Shown: positions 28,849-55,667 of the stretch, piece by piece | Layout of the letters: every line of letters begins with the position of its first letter | Position numbering within the stretch: the stretch's first letter is position 1 | Assembly (NCBI GenBank): GCA_030447505.1 | Contig: JAUJOT010000006.1 | Coordinates: 1 to 64,000, forward strand | DNA from: Solirubrobacteraceae bacterium | GTDB taxonomy: Bacteria > Actinomycetota > Thermoleophilia > Solirubrobacterales > Solirubrobacteraceae | Length of the DNA: 64,000 nt | Reading direction: 5' to 3' | The notes under the pieces: model-generated | What the model saw: only the letters and a program-made list of their open reading frames with translations | Told to the model about the DNA's origin: nothing | Databases searched by the model: none | Translations under genes and position numbers: made by a program

Positions 28849-29946
28849 TCAGTTCCGCACCGGTCGCTTCATCGTGCGATAGACGAACTCGTCGGTCTGT
28901 GCCGACTCGCGTGCCGAGATGACGCGGTCGTGGTGGCGTGAGAACCGGCAGACCGGATCGGTGGCCGCCGCGTCGCCCGTTAGCCGCAGCGCCTGGCAGC
29001 GGCAGCCGCCCCAATCGACCTCCTGTCGTCCGAGCGGGCACGTGCGGCATGGCTCCTGCATCCAGTCCGTGCCGCGGAAGCGGACGAACGCGTCCGAGCT
29101 GCTCCAGATCCACTCCAGCGGATGCTCGCGGACGTTGGCGAACTCGAGCCCCGGGATCGTCGCCGCCGCGTGGCAGGGCAACACGTCGCCGTTCGGAGCG
29201 ACCACCATCGCCGTGCGACCCCAACCGCCCATGCACGGCTTTGGCAGGTCCTCATAGAAGTCGGGGAGCACCCAGAGAACGTCCACCTTGGGGCCGACCC
29301 GCTCACGAAAGCGCTGGACCGCTTCCTCCGCGCGCCGAAGCTGCTTCGGCGATGGCAGCAGCGCCTCCTGGTTTGCGACCGCCCAGCCGTAGTACTGCGT
29401 GTTCGCAAGCTCGAGCCGCTGCGCCCCGAGCTCGAGTGCGAGATCGAGCACCTCCGCGATCCGATCGAGGTTCTGCCGGTGCAGGACGCAGTTGATCGTC
29501 AGCGCGAAGTCGAGCTGCTTCGCGAGCCGCGCGGCCGCGATCTTCTTCTCGAACGACCGGTTTCCCGCGATGCGATCGTTCTCATCGGCGTTCGGACTCT
29601 GGATCGAAATCTGCACGTGATCGAGCCCCGCTGACTTCAGCGCCTCCGCACGCTCGCGCGTGAACAGCGTGCCGGCGGTGATCAGCGAGGAGTACAGACC
29701 GGCGTCGCGCGAGGCCGCGCACAGCTCCACCAGGTCGCCGCGCAGCATCGGCTCGCCCCCCGTGAGCGCGAGCTGAAGGACGCCGAGTCGGCGCGCCTCG
29801 CGAAAGGTGCGGATCCAGTGCTCGGTCTCGAGTTCCCGGCGGTACTTCTCGCCGCCGATGTCGAGCGGATTCGAGCAGTACGGGCAGTGGAGCGGGCACT
29901 GGTAGGAGAGCTCGGCGATCAGCGTCGACGGCCTATGCTGCCGCAT
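28849..29946 (-). CDS. pqqE: PqqA peptide cyclase (radical SAM/SPASM)
   Basis: 365 residues. It forms the Glu-Tyr carbon-carbon crosslink in PqqA using SAM and iron-sulfur clusters. The radical SAM motif is YQCPLHCPYCSNPL (CxxxCxxC, about residues 15-27). TGGEPMLRGD binds SAM. The C-terminal SPASM cysteines are visible in LPCHAAATIPGLEFANV, MQEPCRTCPLGRQEVDWGG and CRCQALRLTGD. ATG 29946 (MRQHRP) overlaps the end of pqqD by 14 bases. Last gene of the pqqABCDE operon. Confidence 0.96.
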   Translation of the reverse strand: MRQHRPSTLIAELSYQCPLHCPYCSNPLDIGGEKYRRELETEHWIRTFREARRLGVLQLALTGGEPMLRGDLVELCAASRDAGLYSSLITAGTLFTRERAEALKSAGLDHVQISIQSPNADENDRIAGNRSFEKKIAAARLAKQLDFALTINCVLHRQNLDRIAEVLDLALELGAQRLELANTQYYGWAVANQEALLPSPKQLRRAEEAVQRFRERVGPKVDVLWVLPDFYEDLPKPCMGGWGRTAMVVAPNGDVLPCHAAATIPGLEFANVREHPLEWIWSSSDAFVRFRGTDWMQEPCRTCPLGRQEVDWGGCRCQALRLTGDAAATDPVCRFSRHHDRVISARESAQTDEFVYRTMKRPVRN

Positions 29947-30196
29947 CGACCACCAGTCCTCTCGCCGCCATGGCGTCGACCACGCGTCGCACGTCGTCGC
30001 GGAGATCGGCGCGGGCATACCGCACGGACAGGGCACCGACGATCTCGTCGAGCGAGCGCTCTCCGTCGCACAGCTCGAGCACCTCCGCCGCGGTGCGATT
30101 GAGCCGCACGGCACCCTCCGGGACCAGCAGCAGGTGCTCCTCGCGCACCTCGTCGTACCGCAGTCGCGCTCCCGTGGCGAGGCAGGGGCGGGTCAC
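29933..30196 (-). CDS. pqqD: PQQ biosynthesis peptide chaperone
   Basis: 87 residues, the usual size. It binds PqqA and presents it to PqqE (RiPP recognition element, winged helix). Visible: LATGARLRYDEVREEHLLLV then PEGAVRLNRTAAEVLELCDG, and LDEIVGALSVRYA. The GTG start at 30196 overlaps the pqqC stop (GTGA). No fusion to pqqC or pqqE, unlike in some organisms. Confidence 0.95.
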   Translation of the reverse strand: MTRPCLATGARLRYDEVREEHLLLVPEGAVRLNRTAAEVLELCDGERSLDEIVGALSVRYARADLRDDVRRVVDAMAARGLVVDAAA

Positions 30197-30930
30197 GCGC
30201 GGGTCACCGGCGGCTGCGTGTCGCCGCGCTCGATGGCATCGAGCTGCGCCCACAGCATCTCGGTCTTGAAGCGCAGCGCCGCGACGGCAGACTGTTGCTG
30301 CTCGCGCGTCCCGCAGCGCTCGATGGTGAGATCGAGCGCGTACTGCGCGTCAGCTGGCGCCTTCACGAGCCGTGTACGGAAGTACTCGAGCCCCGAGGAC
30401 TCGATCCAGTCGTAGTGACGCTCGAGCGCCTCGAGCCGCACGCGCATCGCGGCCGGGGCGAAGAGCTCTGTGAGCGATGACGCGACCGCCTCGAGCCACG
30501 GCTTGTGGCGCGCGAAGGTCACGTAGGCGTCGACCGCGTAGCGCACCGTGGGGAGGACGCGCTGTTCGGAGACGAGGTCTCCGCGCGGCACGCCGAGCGC
30601 CTCGCCGAGCCGCAGCCACGATTCGATGGCGCCCGTTGCGTCGCTCGTGCCGTCGTGGTCGATGATGCGCTGTATCCATACGCGCCGGACCTCCACCTCG
30701 GGGCAGTTGGCGAGGATCGCCGCGTCCTTCAGCGGGATGCACCTCTGGTAGTAGAAGCGGTTCACGGCCCAGCGTTGGAGCTCCGCGCGCGTGAGCTCTC
30801 CCGCGTCCATGCGTCTGTGGAAGGGGTGCAGGTCGTGGTAGCGCGTCGCCTGCGCGCGCAGGCGAGCGGTGAACTCCTCGGGCGGCCACGGGCCGCGATC
30901 ACCCGCCGGTCTCGTGGCAGTCTCGCTCAC
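30193..30930 (-). CDS. pqqC: Pyrroloquinoline-quinone synthase
   Basis: 245 residues, heme-oxygenase-like all-helical fold. It carries out the final ring closure and eight-electron oxidation to PQQ. Family marks: YHDLHPFHRRMDAGELTRAE, VNRFYYQRCIPLKDAAILAN, and RIIDHDGTSDATGAIESWLR, with the active-site His and Arg/Tyr residues. The GTG start overlaps the pqqB stop (GTGA), and its own stop overlaps the pqqD start, so B-C-D are translationally coupled. Confidence 0.96.
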   Translation of the reverse strand: MSETATRPAGDRGPWPPEEFTARLRAQATRYHDLHPFHRRMDAGELTRAELQRWAVNRFYYQRCIPLKDAAILANCPEVEVRRVWIQRIIDHDGTSDATGAIESWLRLGEALGVPRGDLVSEQRVLPTVRYAVDAYVTFARHKPWLEAVASSLTELFAPAAMRVRLEALERHYDWIESSGLEYFRTRLVKAPADAQYALDLTIERCGTREQQQSAVAALRFKTEMLWAQLDAIERGDTQPPVTRA

Positions 30931-31823
30931 AGCTCGATCTCGAGACCGTCGTAGGCAACCTCGACGCCCGCGTGGAGGACCGCCTCGCGCTCGTCGGAGT
31001 CCTCGAGCAGGATCGGGTTCGTGTTGTTGATGTGGACGAGCACCTTGCGCGGTCGCTCCAGCCGCGCGAGCGCCTCGAGCGTCCCGCCGGGCCCCGAGAG
31101 TGGCACGTGTCCCATGTCGCCCGCGCTGCGGACGGAGATGCCGAGTCGAGGAAGCTCGTCGTCGCGCCAGAACGTCCCGTCGACGAGCACGAGATCGCTC
31201 GTCTGCAACCGGGTGAGCACGCCATCGTCCAAGCGGGCGAGACCAGGAGCGTAGGTGACGACGCCGCCGCCCGAGCGATCGCGGAAGACGAACCCACTCG
31301 CCCCGAGCTCTACGCCTGACCCGCTCAGGTAACGCGGCGCGTCGCCGCCCACGTCGAACGGCTCGACTGTGAGGCTCGACCCTTCCAGCGGTCTCGACCG
31401 CTCCCGTTCCAGCCTCTGCCACTCGACCCCGCAATAGCGCTCGAGCATCGCCAACACCGGATACCCGTCCCTCAGCGCGCGCTCGACGCCTTCATCTCCG
31501 AAGACGCGCACCGGCGCTGCCGACTCACGCAGGAGGAGAAGCCCCGCCGTGTGATCGATCTCCGCGTCGGTCAGGAGCACCCCCGCGATCGGCGCCGCGC
31601 GAACGCCGTCGACCTGCCGGGCTGTGAGCGCCTCCAGCTGCTGGCGCGCGTCCGGTGAGGCGTTCACGAGGAACCACGGCCCCTCGCGACCCCGGATCGC
31701 CAGCGACGACTGCGTACGCGGTCGCGCCCGTACACCCTCGCGCGCCGCCTCGCACGTCTCGCAGTGGCAGTTCCACTGCGGAAAGCCTCCGCCGGCGGCC
31801 GAGCCGAGAACACGAACGCGCAC
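30927..31823 (-). CDS. pqqB: PQQ biosynthesis protein PqqB (metallo-beta-lactamase fold)
   Basis: 298 residues. It is thought to hydroxylate the tyrosine part of the processed PqqA dipeptide. The start region VRVLGSAAGGGFPQWNCHCE contains the zinc-binding CxCxxC pattern (NCHCETC) that marks PqqB. LLTDAEIDHTAGLLLLRE has the hydrolase-fold Asp-His metal site, and VHINNTNPILLEDSDE is the conserved C-terminal motif. GTG start at 31823; no good ribosome site, and a 63-base gap separates it from pqqA. Confidence 0.95.
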   Translation of the reverse strand: MRVRVLGSAAGGGFPQWNCHCETCEAAREGVRARPRTQSSLAIRGREGPWFLVNASPDARQQLEALTARQVDGVRAAPIAGVLLTDAEIDHTAGLLLLRESAAPVRVFGDEGVERALRDGYPVLAMLERYCGVEWQRLERERSRPLEGSSLTVEPFDVGGDAPRYLSGSGVELGASGFVFRDRSGGGVVTYAPGLARLDDGVLTRLQTSDLVLVDGTFWRDDELPRLGISVRSAGDMGHVPLSGPGGTLEALARLERPRKVLVHINNTNPILLEDSDEREAVLHAGVEVAYDGLEIEL

Positions 31824-31886: not shown

Positions 31887-31961
31887 TTACCGCCGGTACA
31901 GGTAGGAGGTGACCTCGGAGCAGAGATCGACGAACTCGAATTCGGGCTTGATCCACGTCAC
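31887..31961 (-). CDS. pqqA: PQQ precursor peptide
   Basis: A 24-residue peptide. It begins MTWIKPEFEF and continues VDLCSEVTSYLYRR. The invariant Glu and Tyr, three residues apart (E-V-T-S-Y, residues 16 and 20), are the atoms that become PQQ. The GTG start has a perfect AGGAGG 6 bases upstream, the best ribosome site in the operon, fitting a highly made substrate peptide. It is the first gene of pqqABCDE. The leader lies in a 73-base divergent gap with the M17 peptidase. Confidence 0.95.
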   Translation of the reverse strand: MTWIKPEFEFVDLCSEVTSYLYRR

Positions 31962-32034
31962 GCGAGGCCTCCTACTAGGGTGCACGAAACTTGGACACTA
32001 CCCACCGCAGGAGCCGAACGATCACAGTCAGACG

Positions 32035-33432
32035 ATGGACATCGAAGTAACCGCGGCGGAGCCGTCTGCGGTCGGCGCCGATCTCATCGCTGCCGGCGTG
32101 GGGGCGCGGGCCGCGCAGCTTGGTGCCCCGCAGCGCGCGATCGCGGATGCAGATCCCGTCGCCATCGTCTATACGGCTGCCGCCCCGCTCGCTGTCGTCG
32201 CACTCGAGCCGGACGTCGAGGGACTGCGGACGGGCGCTGCGCGGGCGGTGCGCGCGTGCCGCGGCGGCGGCACGGTGGCGTGGGCGCTCGAGGCGTCCCT
32301 GCCCCTCCCCGTCGAGGAGCAGGTGCGCGCGCTGGCCGAGGGCGCCGTCCTCGGCAGCTACGACGCTCGCCGCTGGCGAAGCGGCGAGCAGCCGCGCGGC
32401 GTCCAGCGCTTCGTGATCTGCGGCTGCGGCGACGACGTCACGCCCGTGGCCAACCGCGCAGCGCTCGTCGCGCGTTGGACGAACGCGGCCCGCGAGCTCG
32501 TCGACGCCCCGCCGAACGTCGTCTCACCGGCCGGGCTCACGGAGCGCGCGGCGGCGTTTCCGCGGCTGCGGGCCGAGACGATCGACCCCGCCGCGGCGGG
32601 GCTTGGCGCACTCGCCGCCGTGGGCGCGAGCAGCCCGGCCCAACCGCTTCTCCTCGTGCTCCGGCACGAGCCGCCCGGCGCGCCGGCCGCACCCCGGCTG
32701 GCGCTCGTCGGGAAGGCCGTCACCTTCGATTCGGGCGGCTACTTCCTCAAGCCGCAGACGGACATCATCCGCCAGAAGGCCGACATGGCGGGCGGCGCGG
32801 CCGTCGTGGCGGCGCTCGGCGCGATCGCCGAACTCGAGCTCCCGCTGTCGGTCACCGGTGTCGTGCCTGCCTGCGAGAACATGCTGAGCGGCACCGCGAT
32901 GCGGCCGACCGACGTCGTCAGGACCGCTGCCGGCCTCACCGTCGAGGTCACGAATCCCGACGCCGAGGGGCGGTTGATCCTGGCGGATGCACTCTGGTAC
33001 GCGCGCCGCGACGGCGCGACGCACCTCGTCGACCTGGCGACACTGACGGGCGCGTTGCGCGCGGGCATGGGAGACGTCTACGGCGGCGTCTTTTCGACCG
33101 ACGAGCTGTGGCGTGACGCCGTCGTCGAAGCGGGCAACGCAAGCGGCGATCTCGCCTGGCCGTGGCCGCTTCACCCGCGCTATCGACCGCTGCTCGACTC
33201 GACCGTGGCGGATTTGCGCAACACAGCGGGAAAGAGCTTCGGATTTCCGATCGTCGCTGCGACGTTCTTACAGCAGTTCGCGGGCGAGGGGCCGTGGGCG
33301 CATGTCGACATGCTCGGGCCCGCTTTGCTCGACGAGGATCGCGGCGACGCGTTCGGCCGCGGCGCGACCGGCTACGGCGTCCGCATGCTCATCGAGCTCG
33401 CCGCGCGCCTGAGCGCCGAGGCGCGGGCGTGA
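32035..33432 (+). CDS. M17 leucyl aminopeptidase-like protein next to pqqA
   Basis: 465 residues. C-terminal M17 peptidase domain with both metal motifs: VGKAVTFDSGGYFLKPQTD (about residue 224) and EVTNPDAEGRLILADALWYA (canonical NTDAEGR has become NPDAEGR). QKADMAGGAAVV supplies another ligand Asp and Lys-like positions. The N-terminal 150 residues are the usual weakly conserved macro-like domain. Such enzymes remove N-terminal residues from peptides. It is divergent from pqqA and flanked by the PQQ dehydrogenase cluster. A role in releasing the crosslinked Glu-Tyr from PqqA is plausible but inferred. Start ATG 32035; a weak ribosome site. Confidence 0.85.
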   Translation: MDIEVTAAEPSAVGADLIAAGVGARAAQLGAPQRAIADADPVAIVYTAAAPLAVVALEPDVEGLRTGAARAVRACRGGGTVAWALEASLPLPVEEQVRALAEGAVLGSYDARRWRSGEQPRGVQRFVICGCGDDVTPVANRAALVARWTNAARELVDAPPNVVSPAGLTERAAAFPRLRAETIDPAAAGLGALAAVGASSPAQPLLLVLRHEPPGAPAAPRLALVGKAVTFDSGGYFLKPQTDIIRQKADMAGGAAVVAALGAIAELELPLSVTGVVPACENMLSGTAMRPTDVVRTAAGLTVEVTNPDAEGRLILADALWYARRDGATHLVDLATLTGALRAGMGDVYGGVFSTDELWRDAVVEAGNASGDLAWPWPLHPRYRPLLDSTVADLRNTAGKSFGFPIVAATFLQQFAGEGPWAHVDMLGPALLDEDRGDAFGRGATGYGVRMLIELAARLSAEARA

Positions 33433-33475: not shown

Positions 33476-33985
33476 TCACCCGGTCAGCGACATGGCTGCC
33501 GCCGCGAGGACCAAAGCGGCTCCGGCGACAGCGCTGGCGCCAGCGCCACGCTGCATCACCGGGAACACGCGCGGCAGCAGGACACCGACGAGGAGGCCCA
33601 CGAGCGCCAGCAGCGCGCTCGACAACGCCTGCTGACCGGCCTGTCCGAGAAGCCAACCAGCCGTCGGGTCACCGACGAGACCGTAGGTGAGGTTGTCGAG
33701 ACTCAGGGCCCACGGCACGAGCCAGACCGGCCAAAGCGGAGCGACTGCGTGCGTGAGGCCGGCGACGACGAGCAGATAGACCCCCAAGGCGGCCAGCATC
33801 GCCATCTCCATGACCTCGGTCACGCTGGACGAGACCTGCCAGGCGATGGCCGAACCGACCAGGAACGCAACTGCGTCGGCGGCGCCGAAGAGGGCAGCGA
33901 GCGGCAGGCGCGACCGCCGGCCGACGATCGCACCGATCGCCATGCACGCGATCAAACTGTCCAGACCTAGAACCAGGAAGTTCAT
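33476..33985 (-). CDS. MntP-like small membrane exporter
   Basis: 169 residues with six hydrophobic helices. Acidic residues sit inside helices at MNFLVLGLDSLIACMAIGA (first), GAADAVAFLVG (second) and WALSLDNLTYGLVGD (fourth), the pattern of MntP manganese exporters arranged as two three-helix repeats. Substrate here is unknown; manganese is the family default. It lies about 100 bases downstream of the PQQ dehydrogenase on the same strand, so it may belong to that operon. GGAG lies 8 bases before the ATG. Confidence 0.75.
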   Translation of the reverse strand: MNFLVLGLDSLIACMAIGAIVGRRSRLPLAALFGAADAVAFLVGSAIAWQVSSSVTEVMEMAMLAALGVYLLVVAGLTHAVAPLWPVWLVPWALSLDNLTYGLVGDPTAGWLLGQAGQQALSSALLALVGLLVGVLLPRVFPVMQRGAGASAVAGAALVLAAAAMSLTG

Positions 33986-34085: not shown

Positions 34086-35870
34086 CTATTGCGCCAGTGC
34101 GAAGGCGAAGAGAGCGGCTCCGTGTGGCGCCCCGGCCATCTCGGGTGCGAACCCTTCGACCCAACTGCCCCACCCGACCGGCACGGCTATGTACTGGGTT
34201 CCGTCGATGCTGTATGTCGAGGGGCTGCTGTGGTGGCCGCTTCCGCACTGGAACTGCCACAACAGCTCCCCGGTCTCAGCGTGGAACGCGTTGAACTCGC
34301 CCGTAGGCTCGCCGACGAACACGAGGTCGCCTCCGGTGGCGAGCACCGACGCGACCATCGGTGTCTCGTTGCGCCACCGCCACACCTCTTCGCCGGTGGA
34401 CGGATCGAACGCCTTGATGAACCCCTGCATGTTCTTGTCGACGGCCGGGTCCGCTCCGAAGTACGGAAGGCTCTCCTTGAACTCCACGCGCCTCAGCGTG
34501 AGGTTCGCACCGACATCGATCACCGGGACGTAGAAGAGCCCCGTCTTCGGGCTGTAGGCCGTGTGCGTCCATTCCGTGGCCCCGGCCGGCGCCGGCCACA
34601 CGTGGACCGGCTCCCCCTCCCTCTCGGCCCAGATCTTGGGCGTCACCTTACCGTCGGCGGCGATCTCGCCCCAGGTGATGCGTTCGCCGAAGGGCGCCAC
34701 CCGGACCAGCTCACCGTTCGTACGGTCCAGGACGAAGAAGTACCCGTTCTTGTTGAAGTGACCCAGCAGCTTGCGCCCGTCCAACTCGAACAGGATGGGC
34801 GTCATGTTGCTGTCGTAGTCCCACACGTCGTGCGGCGTGTACTGGTAGTGCCAGCGGATCTCGCCGTTGTCAGGGTCCACGGCGATCACGCAGTCGGTGT
34901 AGAGGTTGTCTCCCTCTCGAACGCTTCCGTCGAAGTCGGGCGAGGGGTTGCCGGTCCCCCAGTACATGAGGTTCAGCTCCGGGTCATAGGTGCCGGTGAC
35001 CCAGCAGTTTCCACCCCCCCGCGCCCAGGCGTCACCATCAGCAGGCCACGTCTCGGACCCGGGCTCCCCCGGCTTCGGCACCGTATAGGTCCGCCAGACG
35101 CGCTCTCCGGTGTCGAGATCGAAGGCATCGAGGTGGCCGCGCACCCCGAACTCCCCGCCGGAGCTCCCCACGATCACCAGGTTCTTGACGACCAGGGGAG
35201 CGACCGTCGCGCTCTCGCCGGCCCGCACGTCGCCGTACACCTGGTCCCAGAGACAGTTGCCGGTTTCGGCGTCGATCGCGATCACATGGGCGTTGAGGCT
35301 GACGACGAAGACCTTGCCCTTCGCCACGGCGACGCCGCGGTTGACGTTGCCGCAGCAGATCGGCGTATCGAACGGGATCTCATGCCTGTAGCGCCACAGT
35401 TCCTGCCCGGTCCGGGCGTCGATGGCCCAGACCCAGCCATCCCAGCCCGAGACGTACATGACACCGTCGACGACGATCGGGGCCGCCTCGAAGGCGTACG
35501 TCGACTCCCCCGCCTGCAGGCCGATCGGGCTGAACTGAAACACCCACGCCGGACGGAGGCGCTCGACGTTCTCCGTGTTGATCTGCTCCAGCGTGCTGTA
35601 GCGCTGGCCGTCGTAGGCGCCGTAGTAGGTCAGCCAGTTGTGCGGTTCCGAGCGGGCTTCGAGAATGCGCTCGTAGGTGACATCCCGGACCACCGGTGGC
35701 GCGCTACCGACCGCGGCACTCAGAGATCCGAGGTTGACAGCCCGCTCTGCGGGCACGTAGTGCTTCTGTTGGCCGTGATTCTCGCGTGACTTCCTGACGG
35801 CCGCAATGACCCCGGCCGCGCACATCGAGCCGATTCCCAGCGCGGAGAGCTGCTTTCCCTTGAGCGGCAT
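34086..35870 (-). CDS. PQQ-dependent alcohol-type dehydrogenase with lanthanide signature
   Basis: 594 residues, eight-bladed quinoprotein propeller. N-terminal KQLSALGIGSMCAAGVIAAV is an uncleaved or signal-anchor helix, so the enzyme faces the exterior. PQQ-site marks: the vicinal disulfide PICCGNVNRG, metal-ligand Glu in SGGEFGVRGHLDAF, metal-ligand Asn in GGGNCWVTGTYDPEL, and catalytic Asp in PHDVWDYDSNM. The Asp two residues after the catalytic Asp (DYD) is the known mark of lanthanide-dependent XoxF-type enzymes; calcium enzymes have Ala or similar. Tryptophan-docking repeats such as AIDARTGQELWRY are present. AAGGAG lies 6 bases before the ATG. Confidence 0.92.
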   Translation of the reverse strand: MPLKGKQLSALGIGSMCAAGVIAAVRKSRENHGQQKHYVPAERAVNLGSLSAAVGSAPPVVRDVTYERILEARSEPHNWLTYYGAYDGQRYSTLEQINTENVERLRPAWVFQFSPIGLQAGESTYAFEAAPIVVDGVMYVSGWDGWVWAIDARTGQELWRYRHEIPFDTPICCGNVNRGVAVAKGKVFVVSLNAHVIAIDAETGNCLWDQVYGDVRAGESATVAPLVVKNLVIVGSSGGEFGVRGHLDAFDLDTGERVWRTYTVPKPGEPGSETWPADGDAWARGGGNCWVTGTYDPELNLMYWGTGNPSPDFDGSVREGDNLYTDCVIAVDPDNGEIRWHYQYTPHDVWDYDSNMTPILFELDGRKLLGHFNKNGYFFVLDRTNGELVRVAPFGERITWGEIAADGKVTPKIWAEREGEPVHVWPAPAGATEWTHTAYSPKTGLFYVPVIDVGANLTLRRVEFKESLPYFGADPAVDKNMQGFIKAFDPSTGEEVWRWRNETPMVASVLATGGDLVFVGEPTGEFNAFHAETGELLWQFQCGSGHHSSPSTYSIDGTQYIAVPVGWGSWVEGFAPEMAGAPHGAALFAFALAQ

Positions 35871-35882
35871 CGACTGCTCCTT

Positions 35883-36395
35883 CTACGGTCGGGGCTGGGG
35901 CGGGCGATCCAGGCGAGCCTCGCGCGGAACGTCCCCCAGCACAAGGATCCCCCCGATCAGGCCTCGGCCCTCGTTGTTGGCTATAGCGGAGCTGAACCAG
36001 TAGTAGCCCGGGCCGTCGAGGTTGAGGCTGGCCCTTCCTCGGGAGAGCATCGGCAACCAGATCCATTGCTTGTCGCCGTTGCTCGGCAAGATCGCGCAGT
36101 GAGGGTCCCACGGGTCATCGTTGACGAGCTCGAGGTCGAGGTCGCCCCCATGGGGCATGACGATGACCGACGGTTTCCAGATGAATTCGGCGGGCGGGAT
36201 CCGCAGTTCCGCGCGCAGGCGGCCGTCAGGTCCCTTCTTGGCGTGCGCGAGGCCGCCGTGGATGAACAGTCGGCCCAGCATCGCCTTGTTCTGCCTGTCC
36301 AACCCGGGCAGCGCATTGACGAGCGCGACGACTCGTGGGTTGAGTTGCTTGAGGACGCTCGGCCGAAGCAGGCGTAGGTAGTTCCAGAGGACCAC
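35883..36395 (-). CDS. PQQ-associated cupredoxin-like protein
   Basis: 170 residues. The C-terminal 100 residues look like a cupredoxin beta-barrel: SVIVMPHGGDLDLELVNDDP, DPHCAILPSNGDKQWIWLPM, GPGYYWFSSAIANNEGRGL. The normal blue-copper Cys-x-His-x-Met pattern is absent (YYWFSSAI where YxFxC is expected), so copper binding is doubtful. It directly precedes the dehydrogenase (12-base gap, same strand). This matches, from memory, the PQQ-associated family named after Mycobacterium smegmatis MSMEG_3727. No signal peptide is seen, so location is unclear. GTG start. Confidence 0.75.
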   Translation of the reverse strand: MVLWNYLRLLRPSVLKQLNPRVVALVNALPGLDRQNKAMLGRLFIHGGLAHAKKGPDGRLRAELRIPPAEFIWKPSVIVMPHGGDLDLELVNDDPWDPHCAILPSNGDKQWIWLPMLSRGRASLNLDGPGYYWFSSAIANNEGRGLIGGILVLGDVPREARLDRPPQPRP

Positions 36396-36514
36396 CGTTC
36401 ACCAGCCCTTCAACGGACGTGCCGCCCCGATCGCCGGGATAGCCGCCGAGAACATGGTGCGGAAGGTCTGCCCCCGTCGTTGGCATCCAATCGCGGCAAG
36501 ACCCGTCGTCGGGC

Positions 36515-36706
36515 CTACACGCCCGCGATGCAGCGGCAGTGTCGCCGTGAACTGACGGCGATCGACCTGAAGGTGCTCTTGAGGGTGATCTTCTTGCGCG
36601 GGAGGAAGCGTGGCGCGTCCCCCTCGCTGCGGGCGGCAGCCGAACCGGTGACCATGAGCGACAGAGCAAGCGAGACGAGAGCGCCGACAAGCTTTGTAGT
36701 GGACAT
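36515..36706 (-). CDS. Small exported basic peptide, uncertain
   Basis: 63 residues with a good signal peptide (KLVGALVSLALSLMVTGSAA, then AR). The mature part is short and very basic (PRKKITLKSTFRSIAVSSRR, HCRC). AAGGA lies about 12 bases before the ATG. It reads toward the cupredoxin gene. It may be a real leader/secreted peptide or the start of a broken secreted protein. The rest of 36396-36838 shows nothing else. Confidence 0.4.
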   Translation of the reverse strand: MSTTKLVGALVSLALSLMVTGSAAARSEGDAPRFLPRKKITLKSTFRSIAVSSRRHCRCIAGV

Positions 36707-36838: not shown

Positions 36839-37495
36839 TCATCCCTTGATGAATCTGCTGATGGCGGCGGTGACTTCCGGCGCCTGCAGGGGGCGCTCGA
36901 ACGCGCGTGGTGCGGGGCGCTGGTCGCGAAGGAGTCGGATCGCGGCGGCGTGGCGTCCCTCGACTTGGACGATCTGGCCGGCGGTTGCGAGAATGTCGCG
37001 GGATTTGATGCGGGGTGCGGCGCCGTTGTAGGCGGCCACTCCGGTGTCCTCGAGGGTCTGCGCCAGCCGCAGGACCTGCGTCTCGCTTCTCCCCGGAAAC
37101 GAGAAGCGGGGCTTGTCGCGGGCCTTGGTTCCGAGCTTGCTCAGCGTGGCCGTGAGCGTTTCGGCGTGGTCTTGCTCATGGCGGCCGAAGGAGCGCGCGA
37201 GCTCCTTGGCTTCGGCGCTGAGCGGTAGTCGGGCGGCGCGGCGGTAGAACTCCGCTTCGAGCTGCTCCAGCGTCAGCGCGAAGCTGACGATCTCGGCGTC
37301 GCTGCCGCCGGTTTGGGCGAGCGCGCGATCGACGAACGGGGTCACGGCGCCGACGCCGGCGACGGCACCGGCGGCGAGCGCGCCGCGGAGGATGAACGCA
37401 CCGCGGGTCATGCCGCCGACATCGACGGCGGCCAGCTCGGGCGCGGCAAGATTGGCGTGGGTCACGGGGCGCTCCGTTTCTCTGAGGGATGTCAT
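36839..37495 (-). CDS. Exported ferritin-like-domain protein
   Basis: 218 residues. The N-terminus has RGAFILRGALAAGAVAGVGAV, a signal-like hydrophobic stretch after an Arg (Tat-like but only one Arg). The rest is a four-helix ferritin-like bundle: SDAEIVSFALTLEQLEAEFYRR, GRHEQDHAETLTATLSKLGT, LRLAQTLEDTGVAAYNGAAP, VQVEGRHAAAIRLL. Glu and His pairs (E..EFY, HEQDH, EGRH) could bind two metal ions. It starts within the stop of the preceding ferritin-like gene (ATGA), so the two are translationally coupled paralogs. Function unknown. Confidence 0.85.
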   Translation of the reverse strand: MTSLRETERPVTHANLAAPELAAVDVGGMTRGAFILRGALAAGAVAGVGAVTPFVDRALAQTGGSDAEIVSFALTLEQLEAEFYRRAARLPLSAEAKELARSFGRHEQDHAETLTATLSKLGTKARDKPRFSFPGRSETQVLRLAQTLEDTGVAAYNGAAPRIKSRDILATAGQIVQVEGRHAAAIRLLRDQRPAPRAFERPLQAPEVTAAISRFIKG

Positions 37496-38229
37496 GTGAC
37501 GATGAACGGCTGGACCTGGGCGAGAACCTCGTTCATCGTCATGGGAAGCGCGAAGCTGCCGTCGGGCGTCGCGGATTTCCCGGTCAACGCGTTGAGCGCC
37601 GCGGCGTGCCGGGCCTCGACGGCGTGGATGCTGAGCGCCGCGGCGAGGATCTCCCGGCTTTTGATGTTCGCTGCCTGTCCGAGGTAGGCGGCCGCGCCGA
37701 TGTTCTCCACGCGCGCGGCGAGCCGTAGGACGCTGTCCGGGCTGTCGAGTGGGAACTTCGTGCGCGGCTCGGGCGGCGGCTGCCGCCCGAGCTTGCGCAG
37801 TGTCGACGTGAGCGCCTGCACGTGTTCGGCCTCGTGCTCGCCGAAGCGCTTGAGCATGTCCAGCTCACGCCCACGAAACAGGTCGCTGTCGATCACCTTG
37901 CGATAGAAGTCGGTCTCAAGCTGCTCGAGCGCCAGCGCGTAGGCGACGATCTCCGCATCGGTCGAGCTCTCCTGCGCCTGGCCCGGGCCTCCCGGCGCGG
38001 TTCCTTCCGACTCTGTGATCTTCGAGCCGTCTGCCCCCTGTTGCGGCTCGGGTTCGTCGCCGCCACCACCGCAGGCGGCCAGCAGGAGGCTCAAGGCGGC
38101 GGCGCCGCCGCCGCCGCCGCCGCCGCCGACCATGCGCACAAACCGCTTGCGGGAGGTGTGATCGTGGGCCAGCTCCTCCAGCGCGCCGCCCTCGTGACGC
38201 GTCGCCGGAACGTTGATCGACGTCTGCAT
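37492..38229 (-). CDS. Ferritin-like lipoprotein
   Basis: 245 residues. SRKRFVRMV, then a poly-Gly run and AAALSLLLAACGGGGDEPE, give a lipoprotein signal with lipobox LAAC, so it is anchored on the outer face of the membrane. After a Gln/Gly/Glu linker comes a ferritin-like bundle (TDAEIVAYALALEQLETDFY, GEHEAEHVQALTSTLRKLGR, ENIGAAAYLGQAA, HAVEARHAAALNAL) parallel to its downstream neighbour. The ATG at 38229 is chosen for its CGGAGG 6 bases upstream; an ATG at 38271 overlapping the upstream stop (ATGA) is the alternative. Middle gene of a three-gene operon. Confidence 0.85.
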   Translation of the reverse strand: MQTSINVPATRHEGGALEELAHDHTSRKRFVRMVGGGGGGGGAAALSLLLAACGGGGDEPEPQQGADGSKITESEGTAPGGPGQAQESSTDAEIVAYALALEQLETDFYRKVIDSDLFRGRELDMLKRFGEHEAEHVQALTSTLRKLGRQPPPEPRTKFPLDSPDSVLRLAARVENIGAAAYLGQAANIKSREILAAALSIHAVEARHAAALNALTGKSATPDGSFALPMTMNEVLAQVQPFIVT

Positions 38230-38267: not shown

Positions 38268-39512
38268 TCATGGCTGGTTCTCCGGGAGAGGCGCCTGCGG
38301 CACGCGCGGTGGCCTGGCGGGGAACGCCAGCGCGGGGCAGTTGATGATGATCCCCGCCGACCGCAGCGGCGTGCCGCCCGGTGACGTGACCCTTCCGCGC
38401 GCCGCCAGGCGTCTGATGACGTTGGCGTCGGTCTTGGCGTTGTTCAGGCCGCGTGCGAGCGCTGCGGGCGTGAACTCGACGAGCTGCAGATCCCACAGCG
38501 GGCTGTAGAGCCGCCGATCACGGGCACTGTCGTTGGTCGGGAAGACGTCGAAGACGTTGTGGGCATCCCCGCCTCGCCGGAGCGCGTCGAGGACCGGTCC
38601 GTTCTTCAGATTCGCGTCACGCTCGTTGAGTCCGTCGCGGATGACGTGCGCCTCACCCTGCGACGGCGGACTGGAGCGTGTGCCGACACGTCCGTTGATG
38701 GTCGCAAAGATCGCTGCCCGCGCCGAGTTCTGAAGCCGGCCGCCGTTCGGCGTGGGTGAGAGCGCGAGCGCGGGGACGAAGGTGACGCGTTCGATCGTCG
38801 CAGTCAGCGCATCGGAGGCCTCGAAGCTCAAGTACAGGATCGGCTCGCCGTTGGCGAAGCCCTCGACGAAGAGCACGTCGGCAGTCATGCGCTCCGGGTC
38901 GATGGCCAGCACGCGGTCATGCGTGTTGGTGTGGCGGGTGACGTCGAACGGCGCGTCGCCGGTCGCGATGATCGGGGCGTTGAAGACGACGCCGCTGCCC
39001 TGGACCATCACGAACGGGCTATAAGCGCCGTAAGCCTCGGCTCCCGGGCGAAACGTCGTGGGCGGAAATCCCCGCACGCCGGCCTTCAGTGCGCGTGTGG
39101 GCGCGAAGTTCGGCGCGCCCTGAAACTCCACCGGCGCTCGGCCAAGCAGCTTGTTGCTCGTCTTGACGACCTGCGCGCAGTTGGGGCAGCCGCGTGTGAT
39201 GTTCCGCAAGCGAGGGGCGAAGTTGAGCCGCAACCGTTTGGCGATGCTCTCATCTGATACGTCGGTGATCACAAACCACACCGTTTCGCCGTTCAGCGTG
39301 CCGCGATGCAACGGAAGGCGAGCGAAGTTGCGAGTCAAATCGACGCTCTGGGCACTGCGCAGAGTCAACTTGTCCTTATCGAGCTTCTTGCCGTCGGGAG
39401 CTCGAGCCGGACTGTCCCCGCCGCTCTGGGCGACAGCGAGCAGTGAATTGGCGGACAACGCGCCCAAGACCAGCATCGCTATCACCAGCAGCATTCGTGC
39501 TTGTTTTCTCAT
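38268..39512 (-). CDS. Secreted protein with one CxxC, function unknown
   Basis: 414 residues. Clear signal peptide (ARMLLVIAMLVLGALSANSL, cleaved near AVAQS). The mature protein has a single CxxC in ITRGCPNCAQVVKTS (about residue 110) and one later Cys (IIINCPALAFP). Other recognisable strings: FVMVQGSGVVFNAPIIATGD, TNTHDRVLAIDPE, NDSARDRRLYSPLWDLQLVE. No known domain is recognised. A good GGAGG lies 8 bases before the ATG. It is first gene of the operon with the two ferritin-like proteins, suggesting a metal- or oxidant-related envelope function. Confidence 0.75.
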   Translation of the reverse strand: MRKQARMLLVIAMLVLGALSANSLLAVAQSGGDSPARAPDGKKLDKDKLTLRSAQSVDLTRNFARLPLHRGTLNGETVWFVITDVSDESIAKRLRLNFAPRLRNITRGCPNCAQVVKTSNKLLGRAPVEFQGAPNFAPTRALKAGVRGFPPTTFRPGAEAYGAYSPFVMVQGSGVVFNAPIIATGDAPFDVTRHTNTHDRVLAIDPERMTADVLFVEGFANGEPILYLSFEASDALTATIERVTFVPALALSPTPNGGRLQNSARAAIFATINGRVGTRSSPPSQGEAHVIRDGLNERDANLKNGPVLDALRRGGDAHNVFDVFPTNDSARDRRLYSPLWDLQLVEFTPAALARGLNNAKTDANVIRRLAARGRVTSPGGTPLRSAGIIINCPALAFPARPPRVPQAPLPENQP

Positions 39513-53647: not shown

Positions 53648-53847
53648 GCGGTTTCAGGCCTCTTTCCTTTGAGTGCCTACGGGGTTAGCTGACGGACTCG
53701 CGCTGAAAGAGCTGCGCTACGCCGCGACCGGCCGGCGATTCGCCCCAGTGTGTGGTTCCCCCGCTCCCCGAGCCCTGCGGACCCCGGGATTCGGCGATCT
53801 GACGGCGGCATCGTAGCAGCGATGGATTTCCCTGCATAGTTGCAGTC

Positions 53848-55184: not shown

Positions 55185-55667
55185 CTAGCGCCCAGCGACT
55201 GCGGCGACGTACTGGGCGACGAGCTTGGCTTCTTCGCCCTCGTACAGATCGGCGGGCATCTGGCCCTGGCCGCGTGCGCGGCCTTCCTCGATCGCGTTGA
55301 GCGTCAGGCCGACGGTCGGTGCGAGGACGTCGAGATCGGTACCGACGCGACCGACAGCGCCCGAAGCGTCGAGCGCGTGGCAGGTGGCGCACTTCTGGTT
55401 GAACAGGCTGCGGCCCTCCTGCAGGTCGGCGCTGAGCGTCGTGCCGCCCGGCCCGGCGGCGGCCTGGTCGCTGGTCACGACGACCGCCGGGACGATCAGC
55501 CCGAACAGCACGATCGCGCCCGCGACGGCGAACTCGCCGGCGTGCAGCGGGCGGCGGCGCCCGCGCTCGAGCGTGTCGCGCATCCCGCGCGGGCCGCCGC
55601 GCATCGCCACGAGGACGACGCCGAGACCCAACGCGATGAAGAACGAGAGGAAGGCGATTGCTGCCAT
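55185..55667 (-). CDS. Membrane-anchored c-type cytochrome
   Basis: 160 residues. Two N-terminal membrane helices (AAIAFLSFFIALGLGVVLVA and FAVAGAIVLFGLIVPAVVV) are followed by a single-haem domain with CATCH (about residue 96). The distal Met is probably in GQGQMPADLYEG, with KLVAQYVAAVAG as the C-terminal helix. It would carry electrons on the outer face of the membrane. It could be a fragment of a cytochrome bc or alternative complex III gene cluster, but the genes that usually flank such cytochromes are absent. Confidence 0.9.
   Translation of the reverse strand: MAAIAFLSFFIALGLGVVLVAMRGGPRGMRDTLERGRRRPLHAGEFAVAGAIVLFGLIVPAVVVTSDQAAAGPGGTTLSADLQEGRSLFNQKCATCHALDASGAVGRVGTDLDVLAPTVGLTLNAIEEGRARGQGQMPADLYEGEEAKLVAQYVAAVAGR

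What the first reader, a model, noticed from the sequence alone, without database searches (positions are those of the whole stretch)
34086..36395. Membrane-anchored PQQ dehydrogenase with lanthanide-type DYD motif and a copper-less cupredoxin-like partner
The Asp two residues after the catalytic Asp marks rare-earth-dependent enzymes such as XoxF. It is anchored by an N-terminal helix, has no adjacent cytochrome c, and is preceded by a cupredoxin-fold protein lacking copper ligands. A lanthanide-using alcohol dehydrogenase in a soil actinobacterium with an unknown electron acceptor would be new biology.
Basis: partly seen in the sequence, partly recalled or inferred. Interest (0 to 1): 0.7.

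Follow-up and report, generated by a model that had tools for sequence, protein, structure and literature searches.

The report
Lanthanide-type PQQ dehydrogenase, copper-less partner
A soil actinobacterium carries a known but unstudied cassette: an alcohol-oxidising PQQ enzyme whose metal site resembles rare-earth enzymes, next to a former blue-copper protein that has lost its copper, and comparison with about 80 related loci suggests the pair moved from outside the cell to the cytoplasm.

Summary
34086-35870(-) encodes a PQQ alcohol dehydrogenase (DH) with E240, N308, catalytic D351 and D353 (DYD); its best structural match is the lanthanide enzyme PedH. 35883-36395(-) is a cupredoxin fold lacking Cu ligands. 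The pair is not unique. The partner is the named MSMEG_3727 family (TIGR04339), and at least 104 stretches in sequenced species encode relatives. Every fetched locus with readable flanks has the DH next door, with DYD in 75/75.

New here:
(1) DYD is not a clean lanthanide mark: most other PQQ dehydrogenases of this class have DxD too.
(2) Two outlying homologues keep a complete blue-copper site and export signals. The other aligned ones lost Cys/His/Met, and most conserve Cys100/Ser136/Asp141/Glu142 instead.
(3) Neither protein has an export signal in 75/77 (DH) and 78/80 (partner) loci; the exceptions are the two copper forms. The window is intermediate: helix kept, copper lost.
(4) A metal-cation transporter, MntP or a Na/Ca exchanger, flanks 47/59 operons.

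Best reading: a lanthanide-type (unproven) PQQ alcohol dehydrogenase, probably cytoplasm-facing, with a repurposed, copper-free partner. Metal, location, substrate and electron acceptor are untested.

The parts
34086..35870 (-). PQQ-dependent alcohol dehydrogenase (PedH/ExaF/XoxF-like), 594 aa; metal ligands E240, N308, D351, D353; Cys-Cys pair C172-C173; N-terminal hydrophobic helix 9-25
   Evidence: TIGR03075 621.5 bits; alignment to PedH; AF2 model best VIA match 6zcw Z 43.3; ligands invariant in 41/41 relatives
35883..36395 (-). MSMEG_3727-family PQQ-associated protein, cupredoxin fold, type-1 copper ligands lost (H99 kept; S136, N141, L146), no signal peptide
   Evidence: TIGR04339 216.6 bits, PF23509; fold; ligand columns; hydropathy
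33476..33985 (-). divergent MntP-like membrane protein, 100 bp downstream of the dehydrogenase
   Evidence: No Pfam hit of its own; 31% identity over full length to MntP proteins of related operons; 86% identical copy at the same place in L057
31887..31961 (-). pqqA, MTWIKPEFEFVDLCSEVTSYLYRR, GTG start, ExxxY motif
   Evidence: Translation and comparison with PqqA of related loci
30927..31823 (-). pqqB
   Evidence: TIGR02108 361 bits
30193..30930 (-). pqqC (start inferred)
   Evidence: TIGR02111 307 bits; start
29933..30196 (-). pqqD (start inferred)
   Evidence: TIGR03859 79.6 bits; start
28849..29946 (-). pqqE (start inferred)
   Evidence: TIGR02109 489 bits; start
31909..33432 (+). M17 aminopeptidase between the dehydrogenase and pqq blocks, opposite strand; possibly associated (its first codons overlap pqqA, so the true start is probably downstream)
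   Evidence: PF00883; a 90% identical M17 gene lies directly upstream of the pair in Solirubrobacterales locus L072

Best explanation
A self-contained PQQ alcohol-oxidation cassette of actinobacterial type. Shown: pqqABCDE lie beside the genes and can make the cofactor, and the dehydrogenase is a PedH-like propeller with the four side-chain ligands (Glu, Asn, Asp, Asp) of the lanthanide enzymes. The partner is a cupredoxin fold that descends from, or shares ancestry with, an exported blue-copper protein and lacks its Cys, His and Met. Inferred: the enzyme oxidises a primary alcohol or aldehyde at PQQ activated by a lanthanide ion (Ca2+ not excluded). In most actinobacteria enzyme and partner are cytosolic. 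In the window's lineage the enzyme is held to the membrane by a leftover of a lipoprotein-type signal helix, with the catalytic domain more likely facing the cytoplasm, because the partner has no signal and RKSR follows the helix. The partner no longer carries electrons through copper; it acts as an obligate subunit or metal/cofactor-handling module with a new conserved site (H99, C100, S136, D/N141, E142). Electrons go to the membrane quinone pool or to O2, not to a dedicated cytochrome. The linked MntP or Na/Ca-exchanger gene sets the metal supply, by export of competing or excess cations.
For: Families. PedH is the top sequence and structure match. E240, N308, D351, D353 and CC invariant in 41/41; DYD in 75/75 readable loci. 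The pair is adjacent in every locus with enough flank. Only L058 and L132 keep H99/C136/H141/M146 (C-x4-H-x4-M) and both also carry export signals. DH lacks any N-terminal hydrophobic stretch in 75/77 and the partner in 78/80, allowing alternative starts. Rooted tree: window, copper pair, and all 38 others (98) meet at the base. MntP or Na/Ca exchanger near pqqE in 47 of 59 loci. Single PQQ alcohol dehydrogenase over cut-off in the genome.
Against: The Cys-Cys pair, which forms a disulfide in periplasmic relatives, is invariant here too and fits an oxidising compartment better than the cytosol. DxD is common in other PQQ dehydrogenases, so it does not prove lanthanide use. The copper forms are two metagenome contigs that form one branch, so loss of copper with loss of export is one evolutionary contrast, not many; the root is not well supported (support 39). 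Helix orientation in the window is not settled. No lanthanide transporter, lanmodulin or regulator was tested for.
Confidence: 0.5

Rival explanations
1. Ordinary extracytoplasmic PQQ alcohol dehydrogenase: the window's helix is a signal-anchor with the enzyme outside, and electrons go to a general membrane c-type cytochrome of the cell (for example the one at 55185-55667).
For: Helix of mean hydropathy 1.87, aligned with lipoprotein signals of L058/L132; Cys-Cys pair invariant; the genome has several cytochrome c genes including one in the window.
Against: The partner, which always travels with the enzyme, has no signal in the window; 75/77 related enzymes have no helix; the Cu forms show what an exported pair looks like and the window lost those features; no cytochrome gene is linked.
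Confidence: 0.3
2. Calcium-dependent enzyme in which the second Asp is an ancestral leftover rather than a lanthanide selector.
For: DxD is present in nearly all class-level PQQ dehydrogenases, including those that lost the catalytic Asp; residue after DYD is Ser, not the Gly of PedH; Na/Ca exchangers flank some operons.
Against: Nearest solved relative by sequence and fold is the lanthanide enzyme PedH; in the PedE/PedH pair this same residue is Ser in the Ca enzyme and Asp in the Ln enzyme (PMC5487730).
Confidence: 0.35
3. The partner still binds a metal (not type-1 copper) at the old copper position and shuttles electrons or delivers the active-site metal.
For: Residues 99, 100, 136, 141, 142 are newly and strongly conserved in the copper-less clade (C100 43/46, D141 42/46, E142 44/46), which decay alone would not give.
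Against: The window itself and L057 have Asn at 141; L057 lacks C100; conservation could serve the enzyme interface.
Confidence: 0.25

Closest known systems
MSMEG_3721-3727 PQQ cluster of Mycobacterium smegmatis / TIGR04339 MSMEG_3727 family PQQ-associated protein
   Same: Partner family above cut-off, pair of partner and PQQ alcohol dehydrogenase beside pqq genes
   Different: Window has an N-terminal helix on the enzyme, a divergent MntP-like gene and an M17 gene inside the cluster, and no KatG; the M. smegmatis genes themselves were not compared here
PedH of Pseudomonas putida (6zcw), lanthanide-dependent alcohol dehydrogenase
   Same: Best sequence and structure match, 38-39% identity, Glu/Asn/Asp/Asp ligands, Cys-Cys pair
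   Different: PedH is a periplasmic enzyme (PMC5487730 and general knowledge); here no cytochrome gene, most relatives leaderless, DYDS instead of DFDG, and a cupredoxin-fold partner
XoxF lanthanide methanol dehydrogenase (6dam, 4mae, 6oc5)
   Same: Fold (Z about 40-41) and the DxD metal site
   Different: No XoxG or XoxJ gene beside it; lower identity (34-36%)
Auracyanin and other type-1 blue copper proteins
   Same: Cupredoxin fold; L058/L132 homologues have C-x4-H-x4-M
   Different: Window and main actinobacterial clade lack Cys, His and Met ligands
PQQ dehydrogenases of heterotrophic marine Thaumarchaeota (PMC7300363)
   Same: DYD variants and proposed blue-copper acceptors
   Different: They lack the Cys-Cys motif, and most have signals or membrane segments

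Membership tests
PQQ-dependent methanol/ethanol dehydrogenase family (TIGR03075) | Score above curated cut-off and quinoprotein propeller fold | tested here: met
   621.5 vs 480 bits; model matches only quinoprotein dehydrogenases at the top
PQQ-dependent methanol/ethanol dehydrogenase family (TIGR03075) | Catalytic Asp, Glu and Asn metal ligands, vicinal Cys-Cys | tested here: met
   D351, E240, N308, C172-C173, all 41/41
Lanthanide-dependent alcohol dehydrogenases (PedH/ExaF/XoxF type) | Additional Asp two residues after the catalytic Asp | tested here: met
   D353 aligned with PedH, but the same Asp occurs in many other PQQ dehydrogenases
Lanthanide-dependent alcohol dehydrogenases (PedH/ExaF/XoxF type) | Activity with Ln3+ | not testable with these tools
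   Needs protein
XoxF system | Linked xoxG cytochrome c and xoxJ | tested here: not met
   No cytochrome c gene in the cluster and no gene there that family searches name as xoxJ
MSMEG_3727 family PQQ-associated protein (TIGR04339) | Score above cut-off and adjacency to a PQQ dehydrogenase | tested here: met
   216.6 vs 75 bits; genes 12 bp apart
Type-1 blue copper proteins | Cupredoxin fold | tested here: met
   Z 10.7-13.1
Type-1 blue copper proteins | His, Cys, His, (Met) ligand set | tested here: not met
   H99 only; S136, N141, L146 in the window; met in L058 and L132
MntP (PF02659) for 33476-33985 | Score above Pfam cut-off | tested here: not met
   No hit; homology only through related-operon MntPs at 31% identity

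The most novel reading that the evidence does not exclude
Actinobacteria moved a PQQ alcohol dehydrogenase with its blue-copper partner from the outside of the cell into the cytoplasm, turned the copper protein into a copper-free metal- or redox-handling subunit, and recruited MntP or Na/Ca-exchanger pumps to manage the lanthanide (or competing) cations: a cytosolic lanthanide enzyme system, with the window's lineage as a surviving intermediate.
Probability: 0.15. Interest if true: 0.85.

Novelty: new variant of a known kind. Interest (0 to 1): 0.5.

Why it matters
As far as I know, the characterised lanthanide PQQ enzymes all come from Gram-negative bacteria and work outside the cytoplasmic membrane. 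This cassette is widespread in Streptomyces, Pseudonocardia, Amycolatopsis, Rubrobacter and relatives, many cultivable, and has no assigned function. If the enzymes are leaderless and cytosolic as predicted, it would extend rare-earth or PQQ biochemistry to the cytoplasm of Gram-positive soil bacteria and name candidate metal transporters (MntP, Na/Ca exchanger). The copper-to-no-copper series L058/L132, window, rest gives a directly testable path for how a redox partner is lost or repurposed.

Tried and rejected
1) DYD as proof of lanthanide use: rejected as sole evidence after the class-level control. 2) A cytochrome c partner: none in the cluster; the c-type cytochromes of the genome are elsewhere. 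3) Fold of the partner as a multicopper oxidase or CuA domain: these share the fold but no metal ligands beyond H99; not pursued. 4) More copper-bearing homologues: 200 further genomes of the L132 phylum and 246 of the L058 class held no other family member; the plasmid collection gave one partial Streptomyces hit, not examined. 5) KatG as an obligate part: at least 45 of 69 loci have it upstream, but this genome has no such peroxidase. 6) Metal riboswitch upstream: none in the window cluster nor in eight related loci. 7) Rooting copper loss versus gain by tree: the tree with three outgroups plus class enzymes put the root inside the actinobacterial set, the tree with two outgroups at the base; direction rests on the improbability of regaining three ligands plus a signal. 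8) Literature on lanthanide use in these actinobacterial clusters: none found in the searches run; an XoxF5-like PCR product from Actinobacteria isolates is reported (PMC5606694), a different clade. Key papers (Huang 2019, Good 2020) are not held.

Full report
What is there. The minus strand between 28.8 and 36.4 kb holds, in transcription order, the partner gene (36395-35883), the dehydrogenase (35870-34086, 12 bp on), a small MntP-like membrane protein (33985-33476) and then pqqA (31961-31887), pqqB, pqqC, pqqD and pqqE (to 28849); an M17 aminopeptidase gene lies on the other strand between the two blocks. The dehydrogenase scores 621.5 bits against TIGR03075 (cut-off 480) and the partner 216.6 bits against TIGR04339 (cut-off 75), the MSMEG_3727 family PQQ-associated protein. 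It is the only PQQ alcohol dehydrogenase over cut-off in a 97.65% complete genome.

Metal site. phmmer and structure comparison both place PedH first (6zcv/6zcw, E 4e-114; VIA Z 43.3, 518 residues, 39% identity). In the residue alignment, D353 falls on the second Asp of PedH and on Ser or Thr of the calcium enzymes 1flg, 1kv9 and 1kb0. PedE/PedH work shows that this residue is Ser in the calcium enzyme and Asp in the lanthanide one (PMC5487730). Across 41 relatives E240, N308, D351, Y352, D353 and the Cys pair never vary, and WDYD is read in 75 of 75 loci where it can be read. A control limits this: of the other PQQ-dehydrogenase-like loci found in the same class, almost all also read DxD, several after losing the catalytic Asp or the Asn. 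The lanthanide assignment is therefore plausible, not established.

How common. In 41 relatives and in a 396-genome sample of the phylum, the partner family was over its cut-off in no other sampled genome of the window's own genus, family or class but was in ten genomes of another family. This suggests lateral acquisition, although L057, a 'Thermoleophilaceae' metagenome genome, has the same cluster with an 89% identical partner. The genome scan found 104 relatives and kept 80: Streptomyces, Pseudonocardia, Amycolatopsis, Saccharopolyspora, Geodermatophilus, Rubrobacter, Kineosporia and others. All loci with readable flanks have the dehydrogenase next to the partner (in L057 the gene is frameshifted in the assembly).

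The partner. The model (core pLDDT about 90) is a cupredoxin (Z 10.7-13.1 to copper proteins). Two outlying homologues, L058 (Actinomycetota MAG) and L132 (Armatimonadetes MAG), keep a full type-1 copper set: H99, C136, H141 and M146, spaced C-x4-H-x4-M. The other 44 aligned sequences, window included, have Ser at 136 and Leu at 146; position 141 is Asp in 42, Asn in the window and L057. The copper-less clade has conserved C100, D141 and E142 (43, 42 and 44 of 46), so the site looks repurposed rather than decayed.

Location. Allowing alternative start codons, no hydrophobic stretch precedes the domain in 75 of 77 dehydrogenases and 78 of 80 partners. For the partner, the hydropathy threshold alone flags L058; L132 scores just below it but has a lipobox by inspection, so the exceptions are exactly L058 and L132, whose dehydrogenases are predicted lipoproteins. 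The window and L057 dehydrogenases keep a helix that aligns with the lipoprotein signal of L058, without its Cys, and their partners have none. In the tree with PedH and ExaA as outgroup the window, the copper pair and the other 38 (98) separate at the base; the root is weakly supported. With three outgroups and class enzymes, the window groups with the copper pair at 97. Either way the window is intermediate. The invariant Cys-Cys pair argues against a reducing compartment, so the cytosolic reading is an inference.

Neighbours. Of 59 loci with pqqE and at least 1.2 kb beyond it, 33 have a MntP gene and 14 a Na/Ca-exchanger gene nearby (one locus has both); the window's 33476-33985 protein is a divergent member of the MntP-like set at 31% identity. 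KatG-type peroxidase is upstream in 42 of 69 loci by clustering, and three more carry it in another cluster (L110, L111, L115; one member, L111, was identified). A LytTR-type regulator is near 49 of 69. The window's genome has no such peroxidase. No riboswitch was found in the cluster.

Mechanism. Shown: gene content, ligands, fold, absence of copper ligands, lack of signals in relatives. Inferred: alcohol oxidation at PQQ with Ln3+, cytoplasmic side, partner as subunit or metal/redox module, electrons to quinone or O2, transporter for metal control.

Known versus new. The enzyme class, the partner family and the M. smegmatis cluster are known (PMC6529628). I found no published description of the copper-bearing members, the missing signals, the linked MntP or exchanger genes, or lanthanide use in this clade, but only open-licence papers could be searched.

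Noticed in passing
36400-36704, minus strand: Remnant upstream of the partner gene: a signal-peptide-like start followed by a broken reading frame resembling the N-terminus of the DUF7482 protein encoded at 38268-39512; looks like a decayed paralogue.
   Followed up: partly
36839-38229, minus strand: Two ferritin-like (PF13668) proteins with probable export signals in tandem directly upstream, next to a secreted DUF7482 protein.
   Followed up: no
31909-33432 (+) and L072:1-1092: M17 aminopeptidase 90% identical in window and Solirubrobacterales locus L072, both beside the PQQ pair; M19 dipeptidases sit upstream in 7 of 69 related loci. Possibly a PqqA-processing peptidase.
   Followed up: partly
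55185-55667, minus strand: Membrane-anchored c-type cytochrome (CATCH motif).
   Followed up: no
53659-53806, minus strand: c-di-AMP riboswitch (RF00379, 81.4 bits), unrelated to the finding.
   Followed up: no
L057:8511-10303: Dehydrogenase gene of the nearest relative is broken by several frameshifts, probably assembly errors.
   Followed up: partly
L020 and L021 upstream of the partner gene: Tandem repeat of a leader segment with Shine-Dalgarno and ATG followed by a very short open frame in Rubrobacteraceae-type loci.
   Followed up: no
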